From NCBI RefSeq assembly GCF_001557115.1, contig NZ_LSKQ01000178.1, positions 1 to 36,883 of the forward strand: a DNA stretch of 36,883 bases, read 5' to 3'. Under the pieces are notes generated by a model, which saw only the letters and a list, made by a program, of their open reading frames with translations, was not told the DNA's origin and made no database searches. This DNA comes from Erythrobacter sp. CCH5-A1 (lineage in GTDB: Bacteria; Pseudomonadota; Alphaproteobacteria; Sphingomonadales; Sphingomonadaceae). Position numbers and translations under genes: made by a program. The first letter of the stretch is position 1. Every line of letters begins with the position of its first letter. Positions 12,151 to 28,970 of the stretch are shown here, piece after piece.

Positions 12151-14942
12151 TTAGAAGCTCTTGCGCAGCGTGAACTGGAAAGTCCGGCCATAGAGCTCAT
12201 GACGGCTCGGGAAGGACTGGCCCAGCGACACGCCGTTCGAACCGAACAGCTCGTTCTGGGTCACGAAGGGCTCGTCGGTCAGGTTGAACACTTCCGCCAG
12301 CACCTGCACCCGTTGAGGAAGCTGCCTTCCCTGGTGAAGGTGTAGCCGATCTGCGCGTCGAGGATGGTTTCGCTCTGCGCATCCGCGCCTTCGAGACCGC
12401 CCGCGAAGTTCGGCACTTCCGAGAGGAAGCCGCCGCGGTAACGTGCGGCAAGCTTGGCGCGGAAGCCGTACTTTTCGTAGAAGATGTCACCCGACCAGGT
12501 GAGGTCCGAATAGCCCGGGATCGGGATTGCCGAGGTGCCCGGAGGGGTGATCTCGGCGTCCGAATAGGTCAGCGAGTAGAACCCGCCGAAGCCGTCGAGC
12601 GCATCGGTCACGTCACCGAAGTTGACCCGCACCGTCCCTTCGACGCCCGCGATCCGGCCGTCCGAGAAGTTGACCGGCCCATTGAACTGGCCGAGCGCCA
12701 CCTGCGGGTTGGCCTGCAGGAAGGCACCGAAGCCACGGTTCTGGATCTGCTGGGTGAGATCGGCGCTTTCGCCAAGGCTGACCACCCAGTCCGACAAGTC
12801 CTTGTAGAACGCCGCGACGATGATCGCGCTGCCCGGCGTGAAGTATTTCTCGAAGGAGATGTCGTAAGAGGTCGACTTGTACGGCTCGAGCGAGGGGTTG
12901 CCGCCGCTCAGGTCGAAGCAGACCGCCGCCGGGGGGTTGAAGCCCACCACCCGGTCGGGGGTCTGGTCGCCGTTGTCGTCAGGGCAGATTCCGGGCCGGA
13001 CGGTGAGGTTCTGGTTGGCCGCCAGCTGATCGAGCCGCGCGCGGGTGATGGTCTGCGCGAAGGCGACGCGGATGAAGGTATCCTCCATCACCTCGAAGCT
13101 GAGGTTCGCGCTCGGCAGCCAGTTGGAATAGCTGTATTCCACATCGTTGATGCGGCCGCCGGTCAGTGTCCCGGTCGAACCCTGCTTGGTGTCGATATAG
13201 CGCAGGCCGATATTGCCCCGCACCGGCACCGATCCGAGATCGCCGTCGATGTCCGCCTGGATGTAGACGTTGTGAATGCGCTCCTCGACCGTCCATTCGG
13301 TGTCGTCGATCGCGCGCTCGAGGCGGTAGGCGCCGTTGGTCAGCAGACTGGCCGGCTGGTAGGCGATGATGTTCTGCCCGATGCCCTTCGTATCGGTCGA
13401 ACCGACGATGATCGAAGAGGGGATCGCCAGCGAGGAGTTCACGAAGCCGGTGCCGGGCCGCAAGAAGGTGCCGTTGTTGTCGAAGTCCTTGTTGCGGTCG
13501 GTGTAGAGCCAGCCGACGGTGATCTTGTCGAGCAGGCCGCCGTCGAACTCCCAGTAGGTCTCGGCGCGCAGCTGGTGCAGCTCGTCGTTGATTTCGGGCT
13601 CGCGCAGGAAGCCGACCTGGCCCCACCCGCCCGGATCGGTGAGCAGCACGTTGGCCGGATTGGTGTAATCGATCAGCCCGGCGATGGAGTATTCGCCGTT
13701 GCGCGGGAAGGTGAAGGTCAACCGGTCGGCCGGACCCGACCCCGCGCGGCCGGTGCCGGCGTAGCTTTCGTAGTCGACATCGTTGCGGTCGAGAGTCGAA
13801 TAGCCGTAGTCGAGGACGAAGCCGAGATTGTCGGTCGCCTTCCACTCCAAGTTGCCGCCGAAGGCAAGGATGTCCGAATCCGCGCCTTCGGTGTCGGTGC
13901 GCAGGATCGGATAGACGTTGGTGTAGGTGGCGGTGTCGGCGAAGGGACCCGACCCGGTCACCGCGCCAACCTGCGCCCCGCCATTGGTGCTCCACGAGGC
14001 GATCGGGGTTTCGGTGCCGCGGAAGATGCCCTCGTCCTGGGTGCCGGTGTAGAAGCCGTCGATGGTGAGCGAGAGATTGTCGGTCGGCTCGAACTGGAGG
14101 CTGCCGGCGACCGAGGTGCGCTTGAATTCGCGGCTCTGCACGCCCTGGCGCGGGTTGTCGCGCGGGAAGATCACGCCGGCTGCGGTGCGGGCGATTTGCC
14201 CGTTGTTGGTCTTCAGCTCGCGCTGGATGATCTGGGTCGGGATCGACTGCACGGTCGCGCCGAGCGACCAGCCGAGGGTGCCCGCCTCGTTCTGGTCGAC
14301 GTAGCTGCCGAAGAAGCGGTAGCCGCTCGAGCTGAAATCGGGGTTCAGCGAACCGTTGTCGTTGTAGGTGTAGGTGCCCGAGACGGTCAGCTGGCGCTTC
14401 TTGGAATCGAGCGGCTTGACGGTGCGCAGGTCGACTGCGCCGGCGATGCCGATTGCGGCAAGCTGGGCGTCACCGGTCTTGTAGACGATGCCCTGGGCCA
14501 CCAGTTCCGAGGGGAACTGGTCGAACTCGATCCCGCGGTTGTTGCCCGCCGATACGACTTCGCGGCCATTGAGGAGCGCGAGAGAGAAGTCCGGGCCGAG
14601 GCCGCGGATCGAGACTTGCTGCGAACGGCCGCGCACGCGCTGGGCGGTGACGCCGGGCAGGCGCGCGAGCGAGTCCGCGATCGAGAGGTCGGGCAGGAGG
14701 CCGAGGTCTTCGGACGAGATCACTTCGACGATCGAGGTCGCCTCGCGCTTGGCGTCAAGCGAGGACTGGATCGAGCCGCGGATCCCGGTGACGATGATCG
14801 CGTCCTCTTCACCTTCGACCGCAGCCGGTTCTTCGGCCGGCGCATCCTGCGCCAGCACCGGCGTGCCGGTTACCGCGAGCGCCAGAAAGGTCGCGGCCCC
14901 GCACAGCAGGCGCGCGCTTGCATTGATCCCGTTCATTTTCAT
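12151..14942 (-). CDS. TonB-dependent receptor, carbohydrate type, frameshifted near the 3' end
   Basis: This outer-membrane receptor of about 930 residues would import maltodextrins or a related sugar. A signal peptide (MKMNGINASARLLCGAATFL..., ending near PVLAQ) is followed by a TonB-box-like AIIVTG, then the plug domain (SIADSLARLPGVTAQR, QVSIRGLG) and a long beta-barrel. The ATG at 14942 has a GGGAGGGG ribosome site seven bases away. Within CCC at 12309-12311 (plus strand) one base appears missing. The frame as written ends at 12279, but the next frame continues with VQVLAEVFNLTDEPF and ends in FQFTLRKSF at a TAA (12151-12153). This is the expected aromatic-ended last strand. The total length, 2792 bases, is exactly one short of 931 codons. 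Without that 52-residue tail the barrel should not assemble. It is the sole receptor in the locus, divergent from the DUF6445 gene. Confidence 0.88.
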
Positions 14943-15313
14943 CAGAAGTCCCCTCCCGCAAGCGCCGTTCGGCAGCGCTTTTGCAGGTTTTTTCATAGCC
15001 GAACCTGAACCGCAGGTAAATCGCCAAATGCCACCCTTTCGCGGAGACCCCAAAAATCTTGTAATTCGTAGCGTTTTCATGACTTTGAGACGGTATTCCG
15101 AGGGATATCCGGCAGATGATAGCGCTATCATACGTGCAAATGTTGCGCGATTGTCACAGTTTTGCGCCGTGTCGCAGTGCAGCAGGCGATCCTCTGCCGC
15201 CGCGCCCGGCTGAGAGCCCTCTTCGGGCCCGCCTATCGGCCTTTTTTGTAGCATTTCTCGTGCTTTAATCTTGCAGCTTGGAGCCTCGCCGCGCGTTTGT
15301 TAGGCTCCTCCGC
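14943..15313. promoter_or_regulatory. Divergent promoter region between the receptor and DUF6445 genes
   Basis: This 371-base gap has no convincing gene. A TTG-initiated extension of the rightward gene to 15278 is possible but lacks support. Its centre is AT-rich and holds the perfect palindrome listed at 15116-15131. The receptor ribosome site lies at about 14950-14957. Core promoter boxes could not be fixed confidently. Confidence 0.55.
15116..15131. promoter_or_regulatory. Perfect 16-bp palindrome ATGATAGCGCTATCAT, LacI-like operator
   Basis: The sequence is a perfect inverted repeat with the central GCGC typical of LacI-family operators. It lies 174 bases upstream of the receptor start and 183 bases upstream of the DUF6445 start. 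Known LacI-type repressors of sugar receptors bind sites of this length and symmetry. Assignment to the regulator encoded at 9343 is plausible but unproven, because no copy of this exact motif was seen at 5526-5827. Confidence 0.6.
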
Positions 15314-16048
15314 ATGGCCAGCCAGCCCGCCTCGCCCCGACAGGATGCCCCCGCGCGCTGGGGAATTGCCCTCGCTGATGGGCGCGAGGAATATTTTGAC
15401 AATGCAGATCAACGGCTTGTGAGCCTCGACAATTTTCTCGTCGATCCGGACCACGCCATTTCACAAGCGAGTTTGCAAAGTTTTGCAAAAATCACGCCGC
15501 AATATCCCGGCGTGCGCGCACCGCTTGATCCGGCAGTGCAGGCCGCTTGGGCAGCGCAGCTCTCGCCGCTGCTCGACCAGTGGTTCGGCAAGGCGGGCCG
15601 TCCCTGGGCGATGCAGGCATGGTATTCGTTGGTAACCACCCCGCGCGAGGCGCTCGTCCCGATGCAGCGCCTGCCGCATGTCGACGGCACCGATCCGCAG
15701 CAGATCGCGATGATGCTCTACCTCCACCGCACCGGCCACGGCGGCACCGCCTTCTTCCGCCACCGCTCAACCGGGCTCGCGGCGCTCACCGCCGAGACCT
15801 ACCCGCGCTATGCCGCCGCCGTGCGGGCCGAGTATGGCCGCACCGGCCTGCCGCCCGCCGCCTACCCTACCGACGGCGCCCCGCACTTCGAGCGCATCCA
15901 TATCGCCGAGGGGACCTTCAACCGCGCGGTGTTCTACCGCGGCAACCTGCTCCACAGCGGGGTGATCGACAACGACGCCCCCTTGAGCGCCGACCCCCGT
16001 GAGGGCCGGCTGACGATCAACGCCTTCTTCCGCCCGGCCCCCGGCTGA
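15314..16048 (+). CDS. DUF6445-like protein, probable 2-oxoglutarate/Fe(II) oxygenase fold
   Basis: This 244-residue protein resembles DUF6445 proteins found beside TonB-dependent receptors and halogenases (TPQYPGVRAPL at 61-71 is characteristic). The residues of a 2OG/Fe(II) dioxygenase facial triad can be read in order: His122 and Asp124 in LPHVDGTD, His214 in NLLHSG, and Arg232 in GRLTINAFF for co-substrate binding. Family membership and catalysis are inferred from this spacing. No signal peptide is present, so it should be cytoplasmic. The ATG at 15314 is chosen over an in-frame TTG at 15278; neither has a strong ribosome site. Codons 53-59 (agt ttg caa agt ttt gca aaa) are unusually AT-rich and form a palindrome. 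The halogenase gene follows after 26 bases. Confidence 0.8.
   Translation: MASQPASPRQDAPARWGIALADGREEYFDNADQRLVSLDNFLVDPDHAISQASLQSFAKITPQYPGVRAPLDPAVQAAWAAQLSPLLDQWFGKAGRPWAMQAWYSLVTTPREALVPMQRLPHVDGTDPQQIAMMLYLHRTGHGGTAFFRHRSTGLAALTAETYPRYAAAVRAEYGRTGLPPAAYPTDGAPHFERIHIAEGTFNRAVFYRGNLLHSGVIDNDAPLSADPREGRLTINAFFRPAPG
15473..15488. promoter_or_regulatory. Candidate intragenic operator TTGCAAA-GT-TTTGCAA
   Basis: Seven-base perfect arms flank GT inside the DUF6445 gene (codons 54-59). The inner 14 bases match the architecture of the site at 5643-5656 (TGCAAA-NN-TTTGCA). The codons used here are rare for this GC-rich DNA, suggesting that the DNA sequence itself may be constrained. It lies about 160 bases into the gene, where a bound repressor could block elongation. 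Function is unproven. Confidence 0.4.
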
Positions 16049-16074
16049 CGCGGCGAAACATGGGACGAGGACAT

Positions 16075-17601
16075 ATGGAACGGCCTGAAGTGAACAAGCT
16101 GGTGATCGTCGGCGGGGGCACCGCCGGGTGGATCACCGCGGCCGCCTTTGCGCGGCTGCTGGGCCAGCGCCTCACCATCGAGCTGGTCGAGAGCGAGGCG
16201 ATCGGCACGGTCGGCGTGGGCGAGGCGACGATCCCGCAGATCATCCGCCTCAACGCCATCCTCGGGCTCGACGAGAACGCCTTCCTGCGCGCCACATCAG
16301 GCACCTTCAAGCTCGGGATCGAGTTCGTCGACTGGGGGGTCAAGGGCAGCCGCTATCTCCACACCTTCGGCGACACGGGGATGAGTCTCGGTCACGTGCC
16401 CTTCCACCACTACTGGCGGCGCAGCGCCGGGGCGGCGCCTGACCCCAAGGGCTTGTGGGACTATTCGCTCCACCAGATGGCCGCCGATCAGGCGCGCTTC
16501 GGCAAGCTCGATCGGGTCGGCAACACCTCCATGACCGGCCTCGCCTATGCCTATCACTTCGACGCGAGCCGCTATGCCCTGTTCCTGCGCGCCTATGCCG
16601 AGCAGAAGGGCGTCACCCGCACCGAGGGCATCGTCGAGAGCGTCCAGCGCGATGGCGAGAGCGGGGATATCACCTCGATCACTCTCAAGGGCGGCAAGCA
16701 GGTCGCGGGCGATTTCTTCATCGACTGCACCGGCTTTCGCGCCTTGCTGCTCGGCGAGACGCTGGGTGTCGGCTATCAGGACTGGTCGAAGTGGCTCCCC
16801 TGCGACCGCGCGCTGGCGGTGCCTTCCGAGCGGCTGCCGACACTGGTGCCGTATACCCGCGCGACCGCGAAGGATGCCGGGTGGCAATGGCGCATCCCGC
16901 TCCAGCACCGCACCGGCAACGGCCATGTCTATTCGAGCGGCTTCACCACCGACGAGGCGGCGGCCGAGACGCTGCTGGCGGGGCTCGACACCAAGGCGCT
17001 GGGCGATCCGCGCCCGATCCGCTTCACCACCGGGCGGCGCGAGGCCTTCTGGGCGCATAATTGCGCCGCCATCGGCCTCTCCAGCGGGTTCCTCGAGCCG
17101 CTCGAATCGACCTCGATCCACCTGATCCAGTCGCATGTCAGCCGCTTGATCCAGCTCTTCCCGCGCGCCGGAGATCCGGGCGCGATCCGTGAGGAATACA
17201 ACCGGCGCTGCGCGGCGGAGTTCGCGCAGATCCGCGATTTCCTCATCCTCCACTACCACCAGACCGCCCGCGAGGATTCGGAGTTCTGGCGCTACTGCAA
17301 GAACATGGAGGTGCCTGAGAGCCTTACCCACAAGATCGCCCTGTTCGCGCAGGGCGGGCGCGTGGGCCGCGATGTCGACGACCTGTTCCGCGATGCGAGC
17401 TGGGTGCAGGTGATGCTCGGTCAGGGGGTGATGCCGGCGGATTACGATCCGATGGCCGACCAGATCAGCGACGCGCAGCTCGCCGAGTTCCTCGCCAATG
17501 TGAAGACCCTCACCGCGCGTGCGGTGGGCAGCCTGCCCACCCACGAGGAATACCTCGCGCGCCACTGCCCGGTCGACGAAAGGCTGCTCGCCGCCGCCTG
17601 A
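16075..17601 (+). CDS. Flavin-dependent halogenase, tryptophan-halogenase family (paralogue 2)
   Basis: This 508-residue paralogue of the protein at 10365 has FAD motif VGGGTAGW at 12-19, Lys79 in GTFKLGIEF (same number as the catalytic lysine of PrnA), WQWRIP at 270-275 and Glu344 in LEPLESTS. All residues known to be needed for halogenation are present. The two copies share long matching blocks ([44 protein letters not shown]), while the 95-150 and C-terminal regions differ, which suggests different substrates. The start at 16075 follows GAGG at a short distance; an ATG at 16060 in the same frame is the alternative. It forms a two-gene unit with the DUF6445 oxygenase-like gene and ends at a strong terminator. 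The natural substrate is unknown. Confidence 0.9.
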   Translation: MERPEVNKLVIVGGGTAGWITAAAFARLLGQRLTIELVESEAIGTVGVGEATIPQIIRLNAILGLDENAFLRATSGTFKLGIEFVDWGVKGSRYLHTFGDTGMSLGHVPFHHYWRRSAGAAPDPKGLWDYSLHQMAADQARFGKLDRVGNTSMTGLAYAYHFDASRYALFLRAYAEQKGVTRTEGIVESVQRDGESGDITSITLKGGKQVAGDFFIDCTGFRALLLGETLGVGYQDWSKWLPCDRALAVPSERLPTLVPYTRATAKDAGWQWRIPLQHRTGNGHVYSSGFTTDEAAAETLLAGLDTKALGDPRPIRFTTGRREAFWAHNCAAIGLSSGFLEPLESTSIHLIQSHVSRLIQLFPRAGDPGAIREEYNRRCAAEFAQIRDFLILHYHQTAREDSEFWRYCKNMEVPESLTHKIALFAQGGRVGRDVDDLFRDASWVQVMLGQGVMPADYDPMADQISDAQLAEFLANVKTLTARAVGSLPTHEEYLARHCPVDERLLAAA

Positions 17602-21124: not shown

Positions 21125-23257
21125 CTAGCCCCGCATCCAGTCGTGATAGCGCTCGACCCACTTCAGCAGGCCTTCGGGCTTGTTGGCGCGCTTCCAGTTG
21201 CCCGCGGCAAACTTGTTGGCCTCGGCCATGGTGGGGTAGGAATGGATCGTGCCGAGGATCTTGTTGAGGCCGATCCCGTGCTTCATCGCGAGCACATATT
21301 CGGCCAGCAATTCGCCCGCATGCGCGCCGACGATGGTGGCGCCGAGGATCTTGTCCTTGCCGCCCGCAGGCGTGAGCACCTTCACGAAGCCCTTGGTCTC
21401 GCTCTCGGCAATCGCGCGGTCGAGATCGTCCAGTTCGTAGCGGGTGACCTCGACGTCGATCCCCTGCTCGGCCGCCTCGCGCTCGTTGAGGCCGACGCGG
21501 GCGACTTCGGGGTCGAGGAAGGTGACGGCGGGGATCACGCGGTAATCGGCCTTGAACTTGCGGAACATCCCGAACAGCGCGTTGACGCTCGCATACCACG
21601 CCTGGTGGCTGGCAGTGTGGGTGAACTGGTAGGGCCCGGCAACGTCCCCCGCGGCGAAGATATTGGGGAATTTGGTCGCGAGGAATTCGTCGGTGACGAC
21701 GGTTTTCGCAACGTCGACGCCAATGGTCTCGAGCCCGAAGCCCGTCAGCCGCGCCTTCCTCCCGATTGCGACGATCAGCGCATCGAAGGGCACCGCGACC
21801 TCGGCCGCGCCATGTTCGGCGATCAGGGTGCGGCCCTCGATCCGCACCGCCTTGTGGCCGGTGAGGACGCGCACCCCGTCGGCTTCGAGCGATTCCTTCG
21901 CCAGCGCCGAGACATCCGCGTCCTCGCGGCCCAGCAGAGCGTCGGCCATCTCGACCTGCGTCACCTCGGAGCCCAGCCGCGCGAGCGCCTGCGACAGCTC
22001 GCACCCGATCGGCCCGCCGCCAAGCACCGCCACGCGCGGCGGCGCGGCGTCCATCTGCGCGAAGGCCTGCCACATGGTCTCGCTGGTAAGGTAGCCACTT
22101 TCGTCGATCCCCGGGATCGGCGGCACCACCGGCTCGGCGCCGCTGGCGATGATGATCGAGCGGGTGGTAAGGCGCTGCGTGCCGCCTTCGTTGCGGGCGA
22201 TCTCGACCGTCCACGGGTCGATGATCGTCGCGTAGCCCTTGACCACATCGACGCCGAGACCCTCGTAGCGCTCGACGCTGTCATGCGGCTCGATCGCCTT
22301 GATGGTGTCGAGCACCCGCGCGATCACCGCCTTGAACGGCACCTCGGGCTCGACCGGCGCCAGCCCAAACCGGTCGGCATGGCGCATCGTCGCGGCGACC
22401 TTGGCGCTCTTGATGATCGCCTTGGAGGGCACGCAGCCCGTATTGAGGCAATCGCCGCCCATTTCATGCGCCTCGACCAGCGTCACCTTGGCCTTCACCT
22501 GCGCGGCGATATAGGCCGACACCAGCCCCGCTGACCCTGCGCCGATCACCACCAGATTGCGGTCGAACTTCTTGGGGCGGGTGAAGCCGGCATAGACCTT
22601 GCGCGCCTTGAGGAAGCCGATGATGCCCTTGGCGATCCACGGAACGATGCTCAGCAGCACGAAGCTGCCGATGATCGCGGGCGAGGCGATGTCCGACGCG
22701 CTCTCGATCTGCGCCAGCTGCGTGCCCGCGTTCACATAGACCAGCGTGCCGAGCAGCGTGCCGATCTGCGTCACCCAGACATAGGTCAGCGTGCGGATGC
22801 GGGTCAGGCCCATCACCAGATTGACCACGAAGAACGGCACCGCCGGAATCAGGCGCAGGCTGAAGAGGTAGAAGGCCCCGTCCTTTTCGAGCCCCGCATT
22901 GATCGCCTTGAGCCGGTCGCCAAAGCGCGCTTCGATGCTGTCACGCAGCACGTAGCGCGAGGAGAGGAAGGCCAGCGTCGCGCCGATGGTCGAGGCGAAG
23001 GACACGATGATCGTCCCTTCGATCACGCCGAACAACGCGCCCGCCGCCAGCGTCAGCACCGCCGCGCCGGGGAAGGACGCGGCCGTGACGATCACGTAGA
23101 TCGCGAAAAACCCGGCGATCACCAGTAGCGCGTTGGCCTGCTGGAACGCCGCGACCTGGGTCTTTACTCCTTCGATCGTCAGATACTGCCCGAGGTCGAA
23201 GACGAAATAGGCGGCGACGAGCGCGGCCAGCACGGCGATAATGACGAGTTTCTTCAC
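21125..23257 (-). CDS. VTT-domain (TVP38/DedA-like) / MerA-like flavoprotein disulfide reductase fusion
   Basis: This 710-residue protein joins two modules. Residues 1 to about 215 form a membrane VTT domain (SFPGAAVLTLAAGALFG, FSLRLIPAVPFFVVN, VTQIGTLLGTLVYVNAGTQ). Residues 232-710 form a class I pyridine nucleotide-disulfide oxidoreductase with FAD motif GAGSAG (239-244), redox pair Cys270/Cys275 in GGDCLNTGCVPSK, NAD(P) motif GGGPIG and a C-terminal HSYPTMAE dimer-interface acid/base. It lacks the N-terminal heavy-metal domain and terminal CC pair of true mercuric reductase, so mercury reduction is unlikely. The GTG at 23257 has an AGGGGA ribosome site seven bases away; the longer open frame upstream overlaps the preceding gene and is not protein-like. 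It lies 46 bases after the NDH-2-like gene. Confidence 0.9.
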   Translation of the reverse strand: MKKLVIIAVLAALVAAYFVFDLGQYLTIEGVKTQVAAFQQANALLVIAGFFAIYVIVTAASFPGAAVLTLAAGALFGVIEGTIIVSFASTIGATLAFLSSRYVLRDSIEARFGDRLKAINAGLEKDGAFYLFSLRLIPAVPFFVVNLVMGLTRIRTLTYVWVTQIGTLLGTLVYVNAGTQLAQIESASDIASPAIIGSFVLLSIVPWIAKGIIGFLKARKVYAGFTRPKKFDRNLVVIGAGSAGLVSAYIAAQVKAKVTLVEAHEMGGDCLNTGCVPSKAIIKSAKVAATMRHADRFGLAPVEPEVPFKAVIARVLDTIKAIEPHDSVERYEGLGVDVVKGYATIIDPWTVEIARNEGGTQRLTTRSIIIASGAEPVVPPIPGIDESGYLTSETMWQAFAQMDAAPPRVAVLGGGPIGCELSQALARLGSEVTQVEMADALLGREDADVSALAKESLEADGVRVLTGHKAVRIEGRTLIAEHGAAEVAVPFDALIVAIGRKARLTGFGLETIGVDVAKTVVTDEFLATKFPNIFAAGDVAGPYQFTHTASHQAWYASVNALFGMFRKFKADYRVIPAVTFLDPEVARVGLNEREAAEQGIDVEVTRYELDDLDRAIAESETKGFVKVLTPAGGKDKILGATIVGAHAGELLAEYVLAMKHGIGLNKILGTIHSYPTMAEANKFAAGNWKRANKPEGLLKWVERYHDWMRG

Positions 23258-23303
23258 GAGACGATCCCCTTTGCGGCCCGGTTCGGTGGCAAACCGCGTG
23301 CCG

Positions 23304-24461
23304 TTACGCCCTTCGCGCCAGTGCGGCGTATTTCGCGATCCAAGCTTTGTCGATCCGGTGCTTGAGCGCAAGCACCCAGCGGCCCTCCGCCGAGACGGGA
23401 CCGTAGCTGAGGATCGCCGAGCCGTCGCCGGTGTTGAGCAGATAGAGGCTGTGGCGGCGCGGATTGTAGCGCGCGCGCGGGGCCTTGCCCTCGATCGCCA
23501 TGCGCAGATTGGCGGCGAGCACCGGTCCGGCGAACACCGCGTGGACCCCGGCATGAGCGAGCGGACGGTCGGTGCGCGCGGCGATGTCTCCGGCGGCGAG
23601 GATGTGGGGATGCGAGACCGAGCGCTGGTGCGCGTCCACCGCGATGAAGCCCGCAGCCTTGGTCGCCACGCCGCTCGCGCGCACCCAGCCGGGCGCGGCG
23701 CTGCCGGTGGCGGCGATGACGCAATCGGCCGGCTCGAGGATCTGGCCGCCTGCCTTCAGCATCCCGCCCTCGAACCGCGCATCTTCCGCGACGACCGCGA
23801 TCCCCTGCCGCGCGAGCGCCCGCAGGGTGCGAGCGCGCACGCCGGGCGCAAAGCCGGGGAGCAACCCGCCCGCCCCCGTCGCAAGCGTCACTTCGGGGCG
23901 CGGGTCAGCGCCCGCAAGGCTCCTCAGACCGAAAGCAAGCTCCACACCCCCCGCCCCGCCGCCCGCGACGACCACGCGCTCCAGCCCGCGCCGAGAGGCG
24001 CGCAAGCCGGCGAGGCTCTCGACCAGCGCGCCGATGGGCCGCACCTCGATGAGCCGTGGATCGTCGCCGAGCAGCCGCGCGCCCTGCCCCTCGCCCCCGG
24101 TGTCGAAGCTGGCGAGGCCGAAGCCGATCTCTTTCCCGCCCGCGGTCGTCACCACACGCGCCTCGGGATCGAGCGCGGTGCACATGTCCAGCACCAGTTC
24201 CACGCCCGCGCGCGCCGCCAGCGCTGCCAGATCGACCAGCCCGTCGCCTTGCGCGTGCTGCCCCGCGAGCCAGCCGGGCACCATGCCCGAATAGCGCAGC
24301 GCCGGCTCCGGGGTCAGCAGCACAGCACGCGCGCCGCCCGAAGCGCCTTGGGGCACACCGTGCCGGATCCAGTCGGCCAGCACCGCGACATGCGCGTGCC
24401 CGCCGCCCACCAGCAGGACATCGGCCTCGATCCGTCCGGTTTGCATGTCCGAGCCTGCCAT
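23304..24461 (-). CDS. FAD/NAD(P)-dependent oxidoreductase (NDH-2-like)
   Basis: This 385-residue flavoprotein begins with VLLVGGGHAHV, the FAD-binding signature of NADH-dehydrogenase-like proteins and of the flavoprotein domain fused to some SelD proteins. TPEPALRYSGMVPGWLAG also fits that group. A second nucleotide motif, VVVAGGGAGGVELA, and the closing FAD motif HPHILAAGDIA complete the fold. No redox CxxC is visible. Its electron acceptor is unknown; it could supply the neighbouring VTT-disulfide reductase, but that is only inference from the operon. The ATG at 24461 follows AAAGG at good distance. GTG at 24464 and ATG at 24446 are alternatives. It is the first gene of the leftward operon. 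Confidence 0.85.
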   Translation of the reverse strand: MAGSDMQTGRIEADVLLVGGGHAHVAVLADWIRHGVPQGASGGARAVLLTPEPALRYSGMVPGWLAGQHAQGDGLVDLAALAARAGVELVLDMCTALDPEARVVTTAGGKEIGFGLASFDTGGEGQGARLLGDDPRLIEVRPIGALVESLAGLRASRRGLERVVVAGGGAGGVELAFGLRSLAGADPRPEVTLATGAGGLLPGFAPGVRARTLRALARQGIAVVAEDARFEGGMLKAGGQILEPADCVIAATGSAAPGWVRASGVATKAAGFIAVDAHQRSVSHPHILAAGDIAARTDRPLAHAGVHAVFAGPVLAANLRMAIEGKAPRARYNPRRHSLYLLNTGDGSAILSYGPVSAEGRWVLALKHRIDKAWIAKYAALARRA

Positions 24462-24724: not shown

Positions 24725-26443
24725 ATGGCAGGCCAAGGCCAGAGTTACGGGTCCAAGATCAGCCTCGTGAAGTTCTTCAGGATCTTCTTCGACATCCTGA
24801 AGCCCGAGGCGAGTTTCTACTGGCTGGCCGCCGTCTACGGGATCGGCATCAGCCTGCTGAGCCTTGCCACGCCGATCTCGGTGCAGATGCTTATCAACAC
24901 CATCGCCAACACCGCGCTGACCGCGCCGCTGGTGGTGCTCTCGCTCACCCTGTTCGGCCTGCTCACCATCTCGGTGCTGCTCTACGCCTTGCGCGTCCAC
25001 CTGATGGAACTGTTCGCCCGCCGGTTCCACGCGCGCATGGTGGCGGAGATCGCGCTGATTTCGGTCTATGCGCAGAACCCGTTCTTTTCGGACGCCAAGA
25101 AGGGCTCGCTGTTCAACCGTTATTTCGACGTGGTCTATGTCCAGACCGCGATCCCGATCCTGATGATCGGCGGCTTCACTACGCTGCTCCAGATCGCGGT
25201 CGGCTTCGTGCTGGTGAGCCTCTACCACCCCTATTTCCTCGGCTTCACGCTGGTGATGATCGCAGCGATCTGGGTGGTGTGGCTGGTGTGGGGCGCGCGG
25301 GCGCTGCGCACGGGTGTCGATGTCAGCCACGCCAAGCACGCCACCGCCGCCTGGCTCGACACGATCGGCCATTCGAACGGCTTCTTCAAGTCGCAGCGCC
25401 GGATCGACTACGCGCTCGACAAGACCGACGATTTCACACGGGTCTACATCAACGACCGGCGGCGCCACTTCCGCCACCTGTTCGCGCAGACCCTCGCCTT
25501 CCTGCTGATGTATGCCGGCGCCAGCGCCGCGCTGTTGGGGCTGGGCGGGTGGCTGGTGATCCAGAACGAGCTCACTCTCGGACAGCTGGTCGCGGCCGAG
25601 CTGGTGCTGTCGGCCGCCTTCGTCGGGGTTTCGCAGCTCGGCAGCTACCTCAACTATTTCTACGACCTGTTCGCCGCGATCGAGGAAATCTCGCAGTTCT
25701 ACGATGTCGAGCAGGAACAGCCCAAGGGCGCCGATCCCTTCGACGGGCCGGACCACACCATCGTGATGAAGGGCGTCAAGGGCCGCGCGCGGCACGAGGA
25801 GGCGCAGTTCGATCTCGACATCCCCTCGGGCTCGATCATCATGGCCGCCGCCAGCCAGCACGGCGTGCAGCGGCTGTTCACCAACCTGCTCAAGATGCAC
25901 GTGTTGCCGCAAGGAGGCATCGCGACGCTGGGCGGCATCGACATGAAGGCGATCGAGGCGCACCACCTCAGGAAGAACGTCCACGTGCTCGACCGGCCGA
26001 GCATCGTCGAGATGACGATCCGCGAATATCTCGCCCTGTCCTGCCCCGACACCGCCCCGCAGCGGATGCTCGGCGCGTTGGAGACGGTGGGGCTGGCGGG
26101 CACCATCGCGACGCTGGAGAAGGGCCTCGACACCCCGCTGGCCTCGACCGGCTATCCGCTCTCGGCGGTCGAGCTCCAGCAGCTGAAACTGGCGAACGCG
26201 CTGCTCGAGCGGCCGCGCATCCTGGTGCTCTCGCGCCTGTTCGACCTGCTCGAGCCCGAACCGATCGAACGCGCGGTCGCCGAACTGCGTGCGCAGGCCT
26301 ACACCACCGTGATCTATTTCTCCGGCCGGCGGATCGATCTCGGCTTCGACCGCTTCCTCTATCTCGAGGCGCACCAGCAGCGCACCTTCGCCAGCTTCGA
26401 AGCCTTTGCCGCCGCCACCGGCATCGCAGTGCAGGGAGCCTGA
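24725..26443 (+). CDS. ABC exporter-like protein with a degenerate nucleotide-binding domain
   Basis: This 572-residue protein has the layout of a type I secretion ABC exporter: six hydrophobic helices at about 31-50, 66-88, 141-165, 168-190, 256-280 and 285-308, then a cassette-like domain at 345-545. The domain keeps its order and hydrophobic pattern but not its chemistry. The Walker A site reads AAASQHGVQR (374-383) without the GKS/T. The Q-loop reads VLDRPS without Gln. The signature LSGGQ reads LSAVE (479-483). Walker B ends LVLSRLF (500-506) instead of DEP. The H-loop reads YFSGRR without His. ATP hydrolysis by this subunit is therefore not expected. The gene is intact and followed after two bases by an HlyD-type adaptor and a TolC-type channel gene. 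The start has a GGAAAGG ribosome site. No functional ABC ATPase is encoded in the window. Confidence 0.85.
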   Translation: MAGQGQSYGSKISLVKFFRIFFDILKPEASFYWLAAVYGIGISLLSLATPISVQMLINTIANTALTAPLVVLSLTLFGLLTISVLLYALRVHLMELFARRFHARMVAEIALISVYAQNPFFSDAKKGSLFNRYFDVVYVQTAIPILMIGGFTTLLQIAVGFVLVSLYHPYFLGFTLVMIAAIWVVWLVWGARALRTGVDVSHAKHATAAWLDTIGHSNGFFKSQRRIDYALDKTDDFTRVYINDRRRHFRHLFAQTLAFLLMYAGASAALLGLGGWLVIQNELTLGQLVAAELVLSAAFVGVSQLGSYLNYFYDLFAAIEEISQFYDVEQEQPKGADPFDGPDHTIVMKGVKGRARHEEAQFDLDIPSGSIIMAAASQHGVQRLFTNLLKMHVLPQGGIATLGGIDMKAIEAHHLRKNVHVLDRPSIVEMTIREYLALSCPDTAPQRMLGALETVGLAGTIATLEKGLDTPLASTGYPLSAVELQQLKLANALLERPRILVLSRLFDLLEPEPIERAVAELRAQAYTTVIYFSGRRIDLGFDRFLYLEAHQQRTFASFEAFAAATGIAVQGA

Positions 26444-26445
26444 CC

Positions 26446-27489
26446 ATGGCGACGCTCAAGGAAGACATGGCGCACTTCACCACCCTCGCCTCCATCCGGG
26501 TGCCGCGGGTGATGCGGGTGGTGTTCTACATGATCCTCGCCGCGATCATCATCGCGGTCGCTTTCCTCGTCTACGTCCCGTGGGTGCAGACCACCTCGGG
26601 CAACGGCGTGGTGACGACGCTGAGCCCCAACGAGCGCAAGCAGGACATCAACGCGCTGGTGCCCGGCCGGATCGAGGAATGGTACGTGCGTGATGGATCT
26701 TCGGTGAAGAAGGGCGATCCGATCGTCCGCATCGCCGATATCGATCCCAATCTGGTCGAACGCCTGCAGGCCGAACGCGCGCAGATCGCGCTGCAGCTGG
26801 AAGCCGCCAAGTCCGCGCTCGCCACCGCCCGGCTCGACGAGCGCCGCAGCCGCGAGCTGTTCGAGGCGGGGCTTGCCGCCCGGCGCGATTACGAAGCCGC
26901 GCAGATCCGCATCGCCGAGCGCGAGGGCCAGGTCGCCGCCGCCGAGGCGGCGCTGAACCGCGCCGACGTCAACCTCTCGCGCCAGTCCGAACAGATCGTG
27001 CGCGCGCCGCGCGACGGCTTCATCCAGAGCCTCAACGCAGGGGACGCGGCAACCTTCATCAAGGCGGGCGACGTGCTCGCGACCTTCGTGCCCGACGGCG
27101 CGGCGCGGGTGATCGAGATCTTCATCGACGGGCGCGATGTCGCGCTGGTGCGGCCGGGCGATGCCACCCGCATCCAGTTCGAAGGCTGGCCGGCGGTGCA
27201 ATTCTCCGGCTGGCCCTCGGTCGCGGTCGGCACCTTCGGCGGCCGGGTCATCGCGGTCGACCGCTCGGCCCAGATCGACGGGCGCTTCCGCGTGCTGATC
27301 GCCGAGGAGAAGCTCGACGGCTACGGCTGGCCTGAGGAGCGCTACGTCCGCTTCGGCGCGGCGGTGCAGGCCTGGGTGCTGCTTGAGACGGTGCCGGTCG
27401 GCTACGAGATCTGGCGCCAGCTCAACAACTTCCCCCCGCAGCTGCCGGCTGCCCAGAGCACCTCGTCAGGCACCGGGACGAAGCAGTGA
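26446..27489 (+). CDS. HlyD-family membrane fusion (periplasmic adaptor) protein
   Basis: This 347-residue protein has one membrane helix (about 27-47, YMILAAIIIAVAFLVYVPWV) followed by a periplasmic adaptor. A biotinyl-lipoyl-like half (GRIEEWYVRDGSSVKKGDPI) comes first, then an Ala/Glu/Arg-rich helical hairpin (about 105-185), the second lipoyl half (RAPRDGFIQSLNAGD) and a beta-barrel. It should bridge the inner-membrane ABC-like protein and the outer-membrane channel. The ATG at 26446 lies two bases after the ABC stop with a CAGGGAG ribosome site inside that gene. A longer open frame reaching back into the ABC gene is an out-of-frame shadow. Its end overlaps the next start by four bases (GTGA). 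Confidence 0.9.
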   Translation: MATLKEDMAHFTTLASIRVPRVMRVVFYMILAAIIIAVAFLVYVPWVQTTSGNGVVTTLSPNERKQDINALVPGRIEEWYVRDGSSVKKGDPIVRIADIDPNLVERLQAERAQIALQLEAAKSALATARLDERRSRELFEAGLAARRDYEAAQIRIAEREGQVAAAEAALNRADVNLSRQSEQIVRAPRDGFIQSLNAGDAATFIKAGDVLATFVPDGAARVIEIFIDGRDVALVRPGDATRIQFEGWPAVQFSGWPSVAVGTFGGRVIAVDRSAQIDGRFRVLIAEEKLDGYGWPEERYVRFGAAVQAWVLLETVPVGYEIWRQLNNFPPQLPAAQSTSSGTGTKQ

Positions 27490-28970
27490 CGCAACTGCGC
27501 CGGCCTGTCCTGATGCTGCCGGGTGCGGCGCTGGCGCTGCTTTGCGCCGCGCCAGCGCCCGTGTCCGCGCAGGACATCGCCCCCAATCCCGAGCCGCTCG
27601 AGGCCGCGCTCAGGACCGGCCCGCTCACCCCCGAAGAGGTCCTGCGCTCCTCGGCGCTGACCTTCCCGCAGGTGCTCGAGGCCTTCGAGCGCGAGGCGGC
27701 CGCACGCGCCGACCAGCTCGGCGCGGATGGTGCCTTCGACCTGATGCTCAAGGGGGAATATTACGACCGCCTCACCGGCTTCTATTCGGGCGGCTATGGC
27801 AAGGTCGAGGCGCGCCAGCCCTTGCGGCTCTATGGGGCGGAGGTCTTCGGGAGCTACCGGGTCTCCAACGGCGACTTCCCGACTTACGAGAACTACAACT
27901 ACACCAACGCCTTAGGCGAAGTGAAGGTCGGCGCGCTGTTCTCGCTGCTGCGCAACCGCGACATCGACAGCCGCCGCTTCGCGATCGAGGACACGCGCCT
28001 CGCCGCCTCGCAGGCGAAGCTCGACGTGATGCTGGTGCAACTGAACGTCCAGCACGAAGCCTTGCGCGCCTATTGGCGCTGGGTCGCGGCGGGCGAGGAA
28101 ATCCGGGTGTTCGAGGAACTGCTCGAAATCGCCGAGGCACGCCAGGTCGGCCTCACCCGCGAGGTGAGCGAAGGCGCGCGCGCGCGCATCGCGCTGACCG
28201 AGAACGAGCAGAACCTGCTGCGCCGCCGCACCTTGCTCGAACAGGCGCGGCGCGACTTCCTCACCGCATCGAACAGCCTCGGCTTCTATCTGCGCGGCGA
28301 GGCCGGGGAGATGATCGTCCCCACCCGCGAGATGCTGCCCGATCTCGGCCGGATGCGCGCCATCGCCAAGCCCGAGGTGCTGGCCGCAACCCCGGTGAGC
28401 GAGGTGATCCGGAACCGCCCCGAGCTCCAGACCTTCGAGATCGCGCTCGAGCGGGCAAACAACCGGGTCGCGCTGCGGCAGAACGACCTGCAGCCCAAGC
28501 TCGACGCCTCGGTCGAGCTGTCGCGCGATTTCGGCCAGATCGGCCCCGGGGGTCCGGGTTTCGATTCGACCGATACCGTGGTCGGCCTCACGTTCAGCGT
28601 GCCGCTCCAGCGCCGCACAGCGCAAGGCGCGGTCCAGCGCGCCGAGGCCGAGCTGCGCGAGACCGAGCTGCGCCAGCGCCGCATCACCGACCAGATCACC
28701 ACCGATGTCGCCAACATCCTCGCCAATCTCGGCGCGGCGATCAGGCTCGCCGATCTGGCCGATGCGGAGGTCAAGCAGGCCAATGCGATGGTGCAGGCCG
28801 AACGCACCCGTTTCCGCCTCGGCGCGGGCGAGTTCTTCCTCGTCAACGCGCGCGAGGAAACCGCCGCCAACGCCCGCATCAGCGCGATCCGCGCGCAGCT
28901 CGCCGGGCGCCTTGCCGAAGCGAGCTACAACGCGGCGACGATGAACCTTAAGGCGCTGGGGCTGGATTAG
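27486..28970 (+). CDS. TolC-family outer membrane channel protein
   Basis: This 494-residue protein has a signal peptide (MTQLRRPVLMLPGAALALLC..., cleavage near VSAQD) and the repeated long helices of outer membrane efflux proteins (for example LAASQAKLDVMLVQLNVQHEALRAY split around residue 185, and the second repeat near 430-490 ending NARISAIRAQLAGRLAEA). It should form the trimeric outer-membrane duct for the exporter operon. It starts with GTG overlapping the adaptor stop, so the three genes are translationally coupled. Its TAG stop overlaps the TAA stop of the convergent minus-strand gene in TTAG (28967-28970), leaving no room for a separate terminator between the two transcripts. Confidence 0.9.
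   Translation: MTQLRRPVLMLPGAALALLCAAPAPVSAQDIAPNPEPLEAALRTGPLTPEEVLRSSALTFPQVLEAFEREAAARADQLGADGAFDLMLKGEYYDRLTGFYSGGYGKVEARQPLRLYGAEVFGSYRVSNGDFPTYENYNYTNALGEVKVGALFSLLRNRDIDSRRFAIEDTRLAASQAKLDVMLVQLNVQHEALRAYWRWVAAGEEIRVFEELLEIAEARQVGLTREVSEGARARIALTENEQNLLRRRTLLEQARRDFLTASNSLGFYLRGEAGEMIVPTREMLPDLGRMRAIAKPEVLAATPVSEVIRNRPELQTFEIALERANNRVALRQNDLQPKLDASVELSRDFGQIGPGGPGFDSTDTVVGLTFSVPLQRRTAQGAVQRAEAELRETELRQRRITDQITTDVANILANLGAAIRLADLADAEVKQANAMVQAERTRFRLGAGEFFLVNAREETAANARISAIRAQLAGRLAEASYNAATMNLKALGLD

What the first reader, a model, noticed from the sequence alone, without database searches (positions are those of the whole stretch)
24725..26443. Export operon whose ABC protein has lost all ATPase motifs
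Seen in sequence: an intact six-helix exporter with a cassette-like C-terminal domain in which Walker A (AAASQHG), Q-loop, signature (LSAVE), Walker B (LVLSRLF) and H-loop (YFSGRR) are all altered at catalytic residues. There is no stop or frameshift, and coupled HlyD-like and TolC-like genes follow. Known: heterodimeric exporters may have one weakened site, but normally keep Walker A. Inference: this is a pseudo-ATPase exporter scaffold, either driven by a separately encoded ABC partner, powered another way, or turned into a regulated channel or assembly platform. It could represent an undescribed envelope system.
Basis: partly seen in the sequence, partly recalled or inferred. Interest (0 to 1): 0.8.

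Follow-up and report, generated by a model that had tools for sequence, protein, structure and literature searches.

The report
Three-gene exporter with dead ATP motor
A bacterial three-part export system, found in two bacterial phyla, keeps the membrane half of an ATP-driven pump but has lost its ATP-burning motifs, so it is probably powered or used in another way.

Summary
The ORF at 24725-26443 is an intact six-helix ABC exporter whose nucleotide-binding domain (NBD) has lost Walker A, Q-loop, LSGGQ, Walker B and H-loop residues. It heads a tight operon with an adaptor (26446-27489) and a TolC-like channel (27486-28970).

This is not decay. The adaptor follows in 80 of 80 related loci, the channel in 77 (three end at a contig edge). 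NBD dN/dS is 0.03-0.18 in 20 pairs. A sister branch (mostly Bacteroidota) usually keeps Walker A but lacks LSGGQ and almost always catalytic Glu and H-loop His. Of 446 distinct clade sequences none has the LSGGQ glycines; one has both Walker B acids.

Conservation is inverted: the membrane domain is better conserved than the NBD, opposite to canonical exporters. E292 is in all 446 and in 0 of 18 canonical proteins.

Best reading (mechanism inferred): a tripartite exporter whose membrane dimer works without ATP hydrolysis, perhaps ion-coupled, with the NBD as a clamp. Canonical ABC genes lay near in only 2 of 80 loci, over 6 kb away. My paper searches found no description of the ATPase loss.

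The parts
24725..26443 (+). Pseudo-ATPase ABC exporter half-transporter, 572 aa: six-helix TMD (about 14-326) and degenerate NBD (about 345-556)
24764..25702 (+). TMD (residues 14-326), the best conserved part across the clade; Q54, R132, K204 and E292 without exception in all rows that reach them, H168 in 458 of 460
25757..26392 (+). Pseudo-NBD (residues 345-556): fold kept, ATPase motifs lost; conserved R383, R424, E483 in the former ATP site
26446..27489 (+). Membrane-fusion (periplasmic adaptor) protein, 347 aa, MacA/EmrA-like fold, family signatures FEGWPxxQFSGWP and YE[IL]WRxxNxFPP
27486..28970 (+). TolC-like outer-membrane factor, 494 aa
24465..24724 (+). Intergenic stretch before the operon (presumed promoter region; the scan found no sigma-70-like site in it)
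   Evidence: inference

Best explanation
SHOWN: the operon encodes an inner-membrane ABC-exporter-fold protein with a conserved NBD that lacks the ATPase residues, an adaptor and an outer-membrane channel, inherited together as one clade of three-gene systems. INFERRED: two half-transporters form a homodimer; the NBDs of the window's branch no longer bind or hydrolyse ATP but stay as a structural dimerisation clamp (perhaps held by new Arg-Glu contacts across the former ATP sites: R383/R424 of one subunit, E483 in the former signature of the other). The membrane dimer passes a substrate to the adaptor and the TolC-like channel without ATP hydrolysis, either coupled to an ion gradient through conserved ionisable membrane-domain residues (above all E292 in TM6; also R132, K204 and the nearly invariant H168) or by facilitated diffusion through a gated path. 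In the sister branch nucleotide binding without effective hydrolysis may still gate it.
For: Motif loss: LSGGQ glycines in 0 of 446 distinct clade sequences against 18 of 18 canonical; full Walker A in 0 of 307 distinct sequences of the sets WIN + 80 loci + two lists of 120. Purifying selection on the NBD, omega 0.027-0.179 in 20 pairs. Conservation inversion: TMD identity exceeds NBD identity in 594 of 595 proteobacterial-branch pairs, 91 of 91 Bacteroidota pairs, 487 of 490 between them, 15 of 15 pairs of loci picked through the MFP alone and 28 of 28 pairs from profile searches; canonical 0 of 153, and 0 of 18 canonical pairs with TMD identity above 30%. In 52 aligned members 17 residues are invariant, all in the TMD and none in the NBD; in the larger set of 461 rows E292, L271, G286 and A290 have no exception, P50, Q54, R132, F134 and K204 none except the fragment L055 that does not reach them. 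E292: 0 of 18 canonical. Operon: MFP in 80 of 80 loci, OMF in 77 of 80, ABC-MFP gap -17 to +14 nt in 80 of 80. TMD-only tree: 52 members monophyletic against 18 canonical, support 99. Precedent that an ABC membrane domain without its NBD can move drugs with protons: LmrA-MD and MsbA-MD (PMC6155054 passages; PMC4979069 passages).
Against: No transport, binding or energetics data exist here. In the MsbA work the NBD-less protein was active but the full-length mutant lacking the Walker A Lys was not (PMC4979069 passages), so a dead NBD can also block transport. E292 was not shown to match the LmrA Glu (E314) and may serve adaptor docking. H168 is Ser in L153 and Leu in P0281. No substrate gene was seen to travel with the operon. 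The sister branch keeps Walker A (113 of 120), so nucleotide may matter there. The NBD is still under selection and has its own conserved motifs, so it may do more than clamp.
Confidence: 0.45

Rival explanations
1. Anchor or gate, not a pump: the pseudo-ABC is a static inner-membrane platform for the adaptor-channel conduit, and the substrate enters from the periplasm (as held for MacAB-TolC; recalled) or the TMD acts as a regulated channel.
Against: Conserved residues also lie in the predicted cytoplasmic half (R132, K204, W210, Y313), which a mere anchor would not need; the whole six-helix fold is kept.
Confidence: 0.27
2. Driven in trans by a canonical ABC half-transporter elsewhere in the genome (mixed dimers or mixed hexamers as in HlyB-HlyD).
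For: Each of the four genomes has three or more other ABC_membrane proteins; the HlyB-HlyD complex holds three HlyB dimers per six HlyD (PMC11026475 passage), so mixed assemblies are conceivable. Without size matching, carriers in one genus have more ABC_membrane hits than non-carriers (4.35 in 60 against 3.43 in 40, mean genomes 3.18 and 2.75 Mb).
Against: Canonical ABC ORFs within the held flanks in only 2 of 80 loci, 6.9 and 9.0 kb away. The genome of L032 (record titled Erythrobacter sp. NAP1) has only three other ABC_membrane hits; one passes the MsbA_rel cut-off and none reaches a type I secretion cut-off. At 2.9-3.6 Mb carriers average 4.53 hits (49 genomes), which may include the pseudo-ABC itself, against 4.31 (16 genomes). 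Walker A and signature are both lost, so no complete composite site in a mixed dimer (inference).
Confidence: 0.12
3. The NBD still uses nucleotide in an unorthodox way, or binds another cytoplasmic ligand as a sensor that opens the TMD.
Against: No Walker A and no Walker B Asp in the window's branch; the NBD is the less conserved part.
Confidence: 0.12
4. Decaying pseudogene or sequencing artefact.
For: Motif loss in one gene could look like decay.
Against: No Walker A, LSGGQ glycines or Walker B Asp in any of the window plus 80 loci, 96 to 47% identical; omega 0.03-0.18; 60 of 100 genomes sampled in the genus carry a match.
Confidence: 0.02

Closest known systems
Type I secretion ABC transporters, LssB/HlyB type (TIGR03375, TIGR01846), with HlyD and TolC
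   Same: Gene order ABC-MFP-OMF in a tight operon; six-helix TMD plus NBD; TIGR03375 is the best NCBIfam model for the window protein (82.4 bits), for the Persicobacter relative (191 bits) and for L144 (174 bits). By sequence profile the adaptor scores nearly the same to an HlyD (8dck_C, 60.8 bits) as to a MacA (4dk0_A, 62.1 bits).
   Different: Far below the 693-bit cut-off; no C39-like domain listed in the window protein; ATPase motifs lost; adaptor below the HlyD type I cut-off (71.4 of 208.65 bits); no substrate gene seen to travel with it.
Heterodimeric ABC exporters with one degenerate site (TmrAB, TM287/288, BmrCD, TAP)
   Same: ABC exporter fold; tolerance of a degenerate site.
   Different: Those keep one active site and a cognate partner (passage for TmrAB; the rest recalled); here no partner gene was found next to the operon and both halves of the site are lost in the same protein.
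MacAB-TolC and EmrAB-TolC tripartite pumps
   Different: MacB is another ABC fold with an active ATPase and EmrB is an MFS protein (recalled); the inner-membrane subunit here is neither.
LmrA-MD / MsbA-MD, NBD-less ABC membrane domains shown to do proton-coupled transport
   Same: ABC membrane domain working without ATP (PMC6155054, PMC4979069; passages read).
   Different: Laboratory truncations of normal ATPases; here the loss is natural and the NBD is kept as a domain without ATPase residues.
Blastomonas fulva 'HlyBD2-OMP2 efflux system' (PMC9505733, passages read)
   Same: Three-gene ABC/HlyD/OMP operon in a sphingomonad, named by similarity to Novosphingobium aromaticivorans; Blastomonas loci carry this family, so it is probably a member (its sequence was not compared).
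   Different: Described there as an ordinary ABC pump; the loss of ATPase motifs is not mentioned in the passages I saw.

Membership tests
Type IV (B-type) ABC exporter fold | Six-helix TMD fused to an NBD fold | tested here: met
ATP-driven ABC transporter | Walker A GxxxxGK[ST], LSGGQ, Walker B DE, H-loop His | tested here: not met
   none in the window protein; full Walker A in 0 of 307 distinct sequences of its branch sets; LSGGQ glycines in 0 of 446 of the clade
ATP-driven ABC transporter | ATPase activity | not testable with these tools
   needs purified protein
Type I secretion system (LssB/HlyB) | Score over TIGR03375/TIGR01846 cut-off | tested here: not met
   82.4 of 693.1 bits and 80.2 of 725.55 bits
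Type I secretion system (LssB/HlyB) | HlyD of TIGR01843 type | tested here: not met
   71.4 of 208.65 bits; BLAST to three canonical T1SS HlyDs E 2e-7 to 6e-5 against 4e-37 or better to the 14 family members compared; but a profile of the family hits an HlyD chain at 60.8 bits
Type I secretion system (LssB/HlyB) | Co-encoded secreted substrate (RTX or double-Gly peptide) | tested here: inconclusive
   no candidate seen in the visible part (25 loci, output cut; ORFs under 90 aa not listed); substrates may lie elsewhere
Heterodimeric ABC exporter with degenerate site | Cognate active partner gene beside it | tested here: not met
   canonical ABC ORF (motif pattern) within the held flanks in 2 of 80 loci, 6.9 and 9.0 kb away; a partner elsewhere in the genome is not excluded
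The pseudo-ATPase tripartite clade defined here | TMD monophyly, family-type MFP, LSGGQ lost | tested here: met
   TMD-only tree support 99 for 52 members; MFP signatures; LSGGQ glycines 0 of 446

The most novel reading that the evidence does not exclude
A naturally evolved class of tripartite exporters in which an ABC transporter has become a secondary-active (ion-coupled) or facilitated transporter: the ATP motor was dismantled in steps (signature first, then hydrolysis residues, then ATP binding), the NBD dimer was re-locked by new Arg-Glu contacts, and transport is run by a fixed set of membrane-domain residues (E292, R132, K204, Q54, and nearly always H168 and Y313).
Probability: 0.3. Interest if true: 0.87.

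Novelty: new variant of a known kind. Interest (0 to 1): 0.73.

Why it matters
ABC transporters are named for their ATP-binding cassette, and whether their membrane domains can run on ion gradients has been argued from truncated LmrA and MsbA. Here nature has apparently done the experiment: a clade spread over two phyla in which the cassette has lost its ATPase residues in the main branch and most of them in the other, while the membrane domain is unusually well conserved. That makes the question directly testable in a simple three-gene system, gives intermediates for how a motor is lost (L144 and L153 keep Walker A; L144 also keeps both Walker B acids), and warns that annotation as 'ABC transporter ATP-binding protein' is misleading for a large family.

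Tried and rejected
Decay or artefact: rejected. Neighbouring ABC partner: a Walker A + signature pattern was sought in the window and 80 loci (flanks up to 10 kb, shorter at contig ends); 2 of 80 had one, far off. The later loci (plasmids, L136-L153) were not scanned this way. A dedicated genome-wide partner: counts of ABC_membrane proteins in 100 genomes of one genus; unmatched, carriers have more (4.35 against 3.43) but also larger genomes; matched by size, 4.53 against 4.31. This is a weak test, since it is unclear in which genomes the pseudo-ABC itself passes the E limit and genome quality is not given. Substrate from gene context: in the visible part what recurs beside the three genes is shadow ORFs antisense to them, shared neighbourhood among Erythrobacter kin, LysR regulators at varying distance (L039, L056, L058, L045; L089 and L131 by annotation) and an acetyl-CoA-synthetase-like gene in a few; one locus has His-Xaa-Ser radical SAM genes nearby (L090). 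Equivalence of E292 with LmrA E314: not tested, not claimed. Phage carriage: no match among 50,697 phage records at E 1e-20.

Limits that cut against me: the pattern scan used two TMD peptides, and the protein searches take words from the first 500 residues, so these sets favour TMD similarity; I therefore repeated the TMD-versus-NBD test on loci picked through the MFP alone and through full-length profiles, with the same result. Between clade and canonical proteins the NBD is the more similar part (TMD ahead in 37 of 936 pairs). The genome searches score only a few candidates per genome (3, 4, up to 9), so prevalences are lower bounds. Prevalence in Bacteroidota was not measured. Protein searches list only the best 120 of 2802, 2042 and 6613 hits, so the census describes those best hits plus the loci, not the whole family. 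Of the 16 Halieaceae-family genomes I read four loci (G784, G785, G792 and the second copy of G694), besides G006, known as L045. L055 is a 312-aa fragment, left out of alignment A2 but kept in the 80. Only 60 of the 81 sequences went into A2. dN/dS is a simple pairwise NG86 estimate; the largest dS values (about 1 to 1.5) are near saturation. One search ended by time limit after the TMD and NBD trees; there the proteobacterial group had support 49 on the TMD and 85 on the NBD. One search, with 12 more sequences, gave 74 (TMD) and 96 (full) for the 35-member branch; trees were rooted on three canonical proteins, and the long stem of the clade (1.8 on the TMD) leaves its place among canonical exporters unsettled.

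Full report
WHAT IS THERE. The window most likely comes from an Erythrobacteraceae genome: the best homologues are Erythrobacter and Porphyrobacter; no whole genome is held for it. The finding's ORF, 24725-26443 (+), encodes 572 aa with six long helices and an NBD-like domain. Pfam recognises the membrane domain (37.7 bits, over cut-off) but the NBD stays under the cut-off (22.1 of 25). It is followed at +2 nt by a membrane-fusion protein (26446-27489, 347 aa) and, overlapping by 4 nt, a TolC-like protein (27486-28970, 494 aa).

THE MOTIFS. Aligned with 18 canonical ABC exporters (counted), the window protein has Q382 for the Walker A Lys, R383 for the Ser/Thr, D423 for the Q-loop Gln, LSAVE for LSGGQ, S503-R504 for the Walker B Asp-Glu and G534 for the H-loop His. 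The best 120 database homologues (84-93% identical), all 80 loci of a scan of one genome per species (96 to 47% identical) and the best 120 homologues of a distant gammaproteobacterial member, L060, have in common that none has a full Walker A, the LSGGQ glycines or the Walker B Asp (0 of 321 rows with the window). Single columns do sometimes match the canonical residue: Lys at 382 in 12, Glu at 504 in 30, Gln at 423/424 in 15 and His at 534 in 1 of the 321 rows. In a census of 461 clade rows (446 distinct over the alignment columns) the LSGGQ glycines are present in 0 of 446, both Walker B acids in 1 (L144) and the H-loop His in 2 (L074, L146); the 18 canonical proteins have all motifs.

A SISTER BRANCH WITH HALF-DEAD CASSETTES. 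A plasmid search turned up relatives in Persicobacter. The Persicobacter protein (L087, 724 aa) has the same three-gene order; where its 120 best homologues carry an organism name it is a Bacteroidota one. They keep Walker A (113 of 120 complete) but lack the LSGGQ glycines (120 of 120), the Walker B Asp (119 of 120), the catalytic Glu (120 of 120; Asp in 119) and the H-loop His (120 of 120). Aureibacter and Riemerella plasmids carry the same operon. Divergent proteobacterial members show further mixtures: L144 (gammaproteobacterial class search) keeps Walker A and both Walker B acids but has LSSSQ and no H-loop His; L145 and L146 keep the Walker B Asp; L153 (phylum-wide search, class not told) keeps Walker A with LSTTQ and a His one column off the H-loop position. 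A tree from the membrane domain alone, which convergent motif loss cannot mislead, puts all 52 sampled members in one clade against 18 canonical exporters with support 99 (full protein 100); it splits into a 35-member proteobacterial branch (support 74 on the TMD, 96 on the full protein) and a 17-member branch of Bacteroidota plus L144-L146 (95 and 96). So LSGGQ was probably lost in or before the common ancestor, and ATP binding was lost later in the window's branch and at least once more (Aureibacter). This order is my inference from the tree.

SPREAD. Carriers (lower bounds, few candidates scored per genome): 60 of 100 genomes of the genus of the L032 genome (record titled Erythrobacter sp. 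NAP1), 36 of 298 of its family, 3 of 385 of its class; 16 of 140 in the family of L045's genome (titled Halieaceae) and 9 of 274 in its class at a looser limit. It also sits on plasmids: 15 of the 17 plasmid records are from Sphingomonadales genera; I fetched three of them. This patchy but recurrent pattern suits an accessory system.

SELECTION AND WHERE IT ACTS. Pairwise NG86 omega in 20 pairs of close relatives is 0.027-0.179 for the NBD and 0.011-0.193 for the TMD. The pattern of conservation is inverted: within the proteobacterial branch the TMD is 55% and the NBD 38% identical on average, TMD ahead in 594 of 595 pairs; Bacteroidota 91 of 91; between branches 487 of 490; in canonical exporters the NBD is ahead in all 153 pairs. 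Because some searches favour TMD words, I repeated this on six loci chosen by their adaptor (15 of 15 pairs) and eight chosen by full-length profiles (28 of 28), and on canonical pairs of similar closeness (0 of 18). Seventeen residues are invariant in 52 members, all in the TMD: L47 P50 Q54 L72 R132 F134 G160 Y167 H168 K204 W210 L271 G274 G286 A290 E292 Y313. Over all 461 rows E292, L271, G286 and A290 have no exception; P50, Q54, R132, F134 and K204 none but the fragment L055, which does not reach them; H168 is replaced in two (L153 Ser, P0281 Leu), Y313 in two, and G160 in 29 rows. E292 is found in 0 of 18 canonical proteins, H168 and K204 likewise.

HOW IT PROBABLY WORKS. With Walker A, Walker B, signature and H-loop residues gone, ATP-driven cycling is very unlikely in the window's branch. 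A mixed dimer with a normal ABC subunit would not rescue it, since each composite ATP site needs Walker A from one subunit and the signature from the other and this protein lacks both (established NBD-sandwich knowledge, applied by inference). Canonical ABC genes are near in only 2 of 80 loci, at 6.9 and 9.0 kb. The L032 genome has only three other ABC_membrane hits: one over the MsbA_rel cut-off, the other two best matched by MsbA-type models below cut-off. In size-matched genomes carriers average 4.53 ABC_membrane hits, which may include the pseudo-ABC, against 4.31 in non-carriers; unmatched the figures are 4.35 and 3.43. I therefore favour ATP-independent work of the membrane dimer. Truncated LmrA and MsbA without NBDs do proton-coupled drug movement, and LmrA needs a TM6 Glu (PMC6155054 and PMC4979069, passages only); against this, full-length MsbA without the Walker A Lys was inactive. 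Ion coupling through E292 and its fellow ionisable residues is a fair hypothesis, not a result. The NBD likely remains as a clamp: R383, R424 and E483 are conserved in 287, 293 and 303 of 307 distinct proteobacterial-branch sequences, at the places where ATP was once sandwiched, and are absent or nearly so (0, 1 and 0 of 120) in the list that keeps Walker A. A platform or gated channel fed from the periplasm is the main rival.

IS IT KNOWN? Ten full-text searches of the open-access library were made; seven aimed at this question, three at LmrA, Riemerella and HlyB. In the listings I saw no paper on an ABC exporter family with these losses; subscription journals and preprints are not held. A Blastomonas fulva genome paper names a HlyB/HlyD/OMP operon that is probably a member and treats it as an ordinary ABC pump (PMC9505733, passages). 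A large review of tripartite systems mentions degenerate ATP sites only in heterodimers in the passages I saw (PMC8277102; only the first 300,000 characters of the text are held). PMC11026475 was seen in passages.

VERDICT. Observation confirmed; interpretation partly supported and enlarged. The conserved pseudo-ATPase clade is well supported by several independent tests; the mechanism is inferred.

Noticed in passing
window 21125-23554 (-): VTT (DedA/TVP38-like) membrane domain fused to a mercuric-reductase/lipoamide-dehydrogenase-like FAD oxidoreductase in one ORF.
   Followed up: no
window 12279-17601: A large outer-membrane-receptor-like ORF (-) beside a possible 2-oxoglutarate oxygenase (+) and a tryptophan-halogenase-like flavoprotein (+); labels by eye from the translations, not searched.
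   Followed up: no
L090:1422-7547: In a Sphingobium baderi plasmid the operon lies beside His-Xaa-Ser radical SAM maturases HxsB/HxsC, a subtilase and an AAA ATPase.
   Followed up: partly
L039:8640-9647, L056:8990-9871, L058:8876-9793, L089:6869-7777: LysR-type regulators close upstream of the operon in several divergent hosts (three by Pfam; L089 by annotation), hinting at control by a small molecule.
   Followed up: partly
L087:5473-5930 and L144:4586-5020 (approximate): The Persicobacter member and L144 carry an extra N-terminal stretch of about 140-150 residues before the membrane domain, with no Pfam match in L087; in this place HlyB has a C39-like domain (passage).
   Followed up: no
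G004:C1 and C14; G694:C8 and C1: Two genomes hold two divergent copies of the pseudo-ABC.
   Followed up: no
L074 and L146, column of window residue 534: Two members keep a His at the H-loop position although the other motifs are lost.
   Followed up: no
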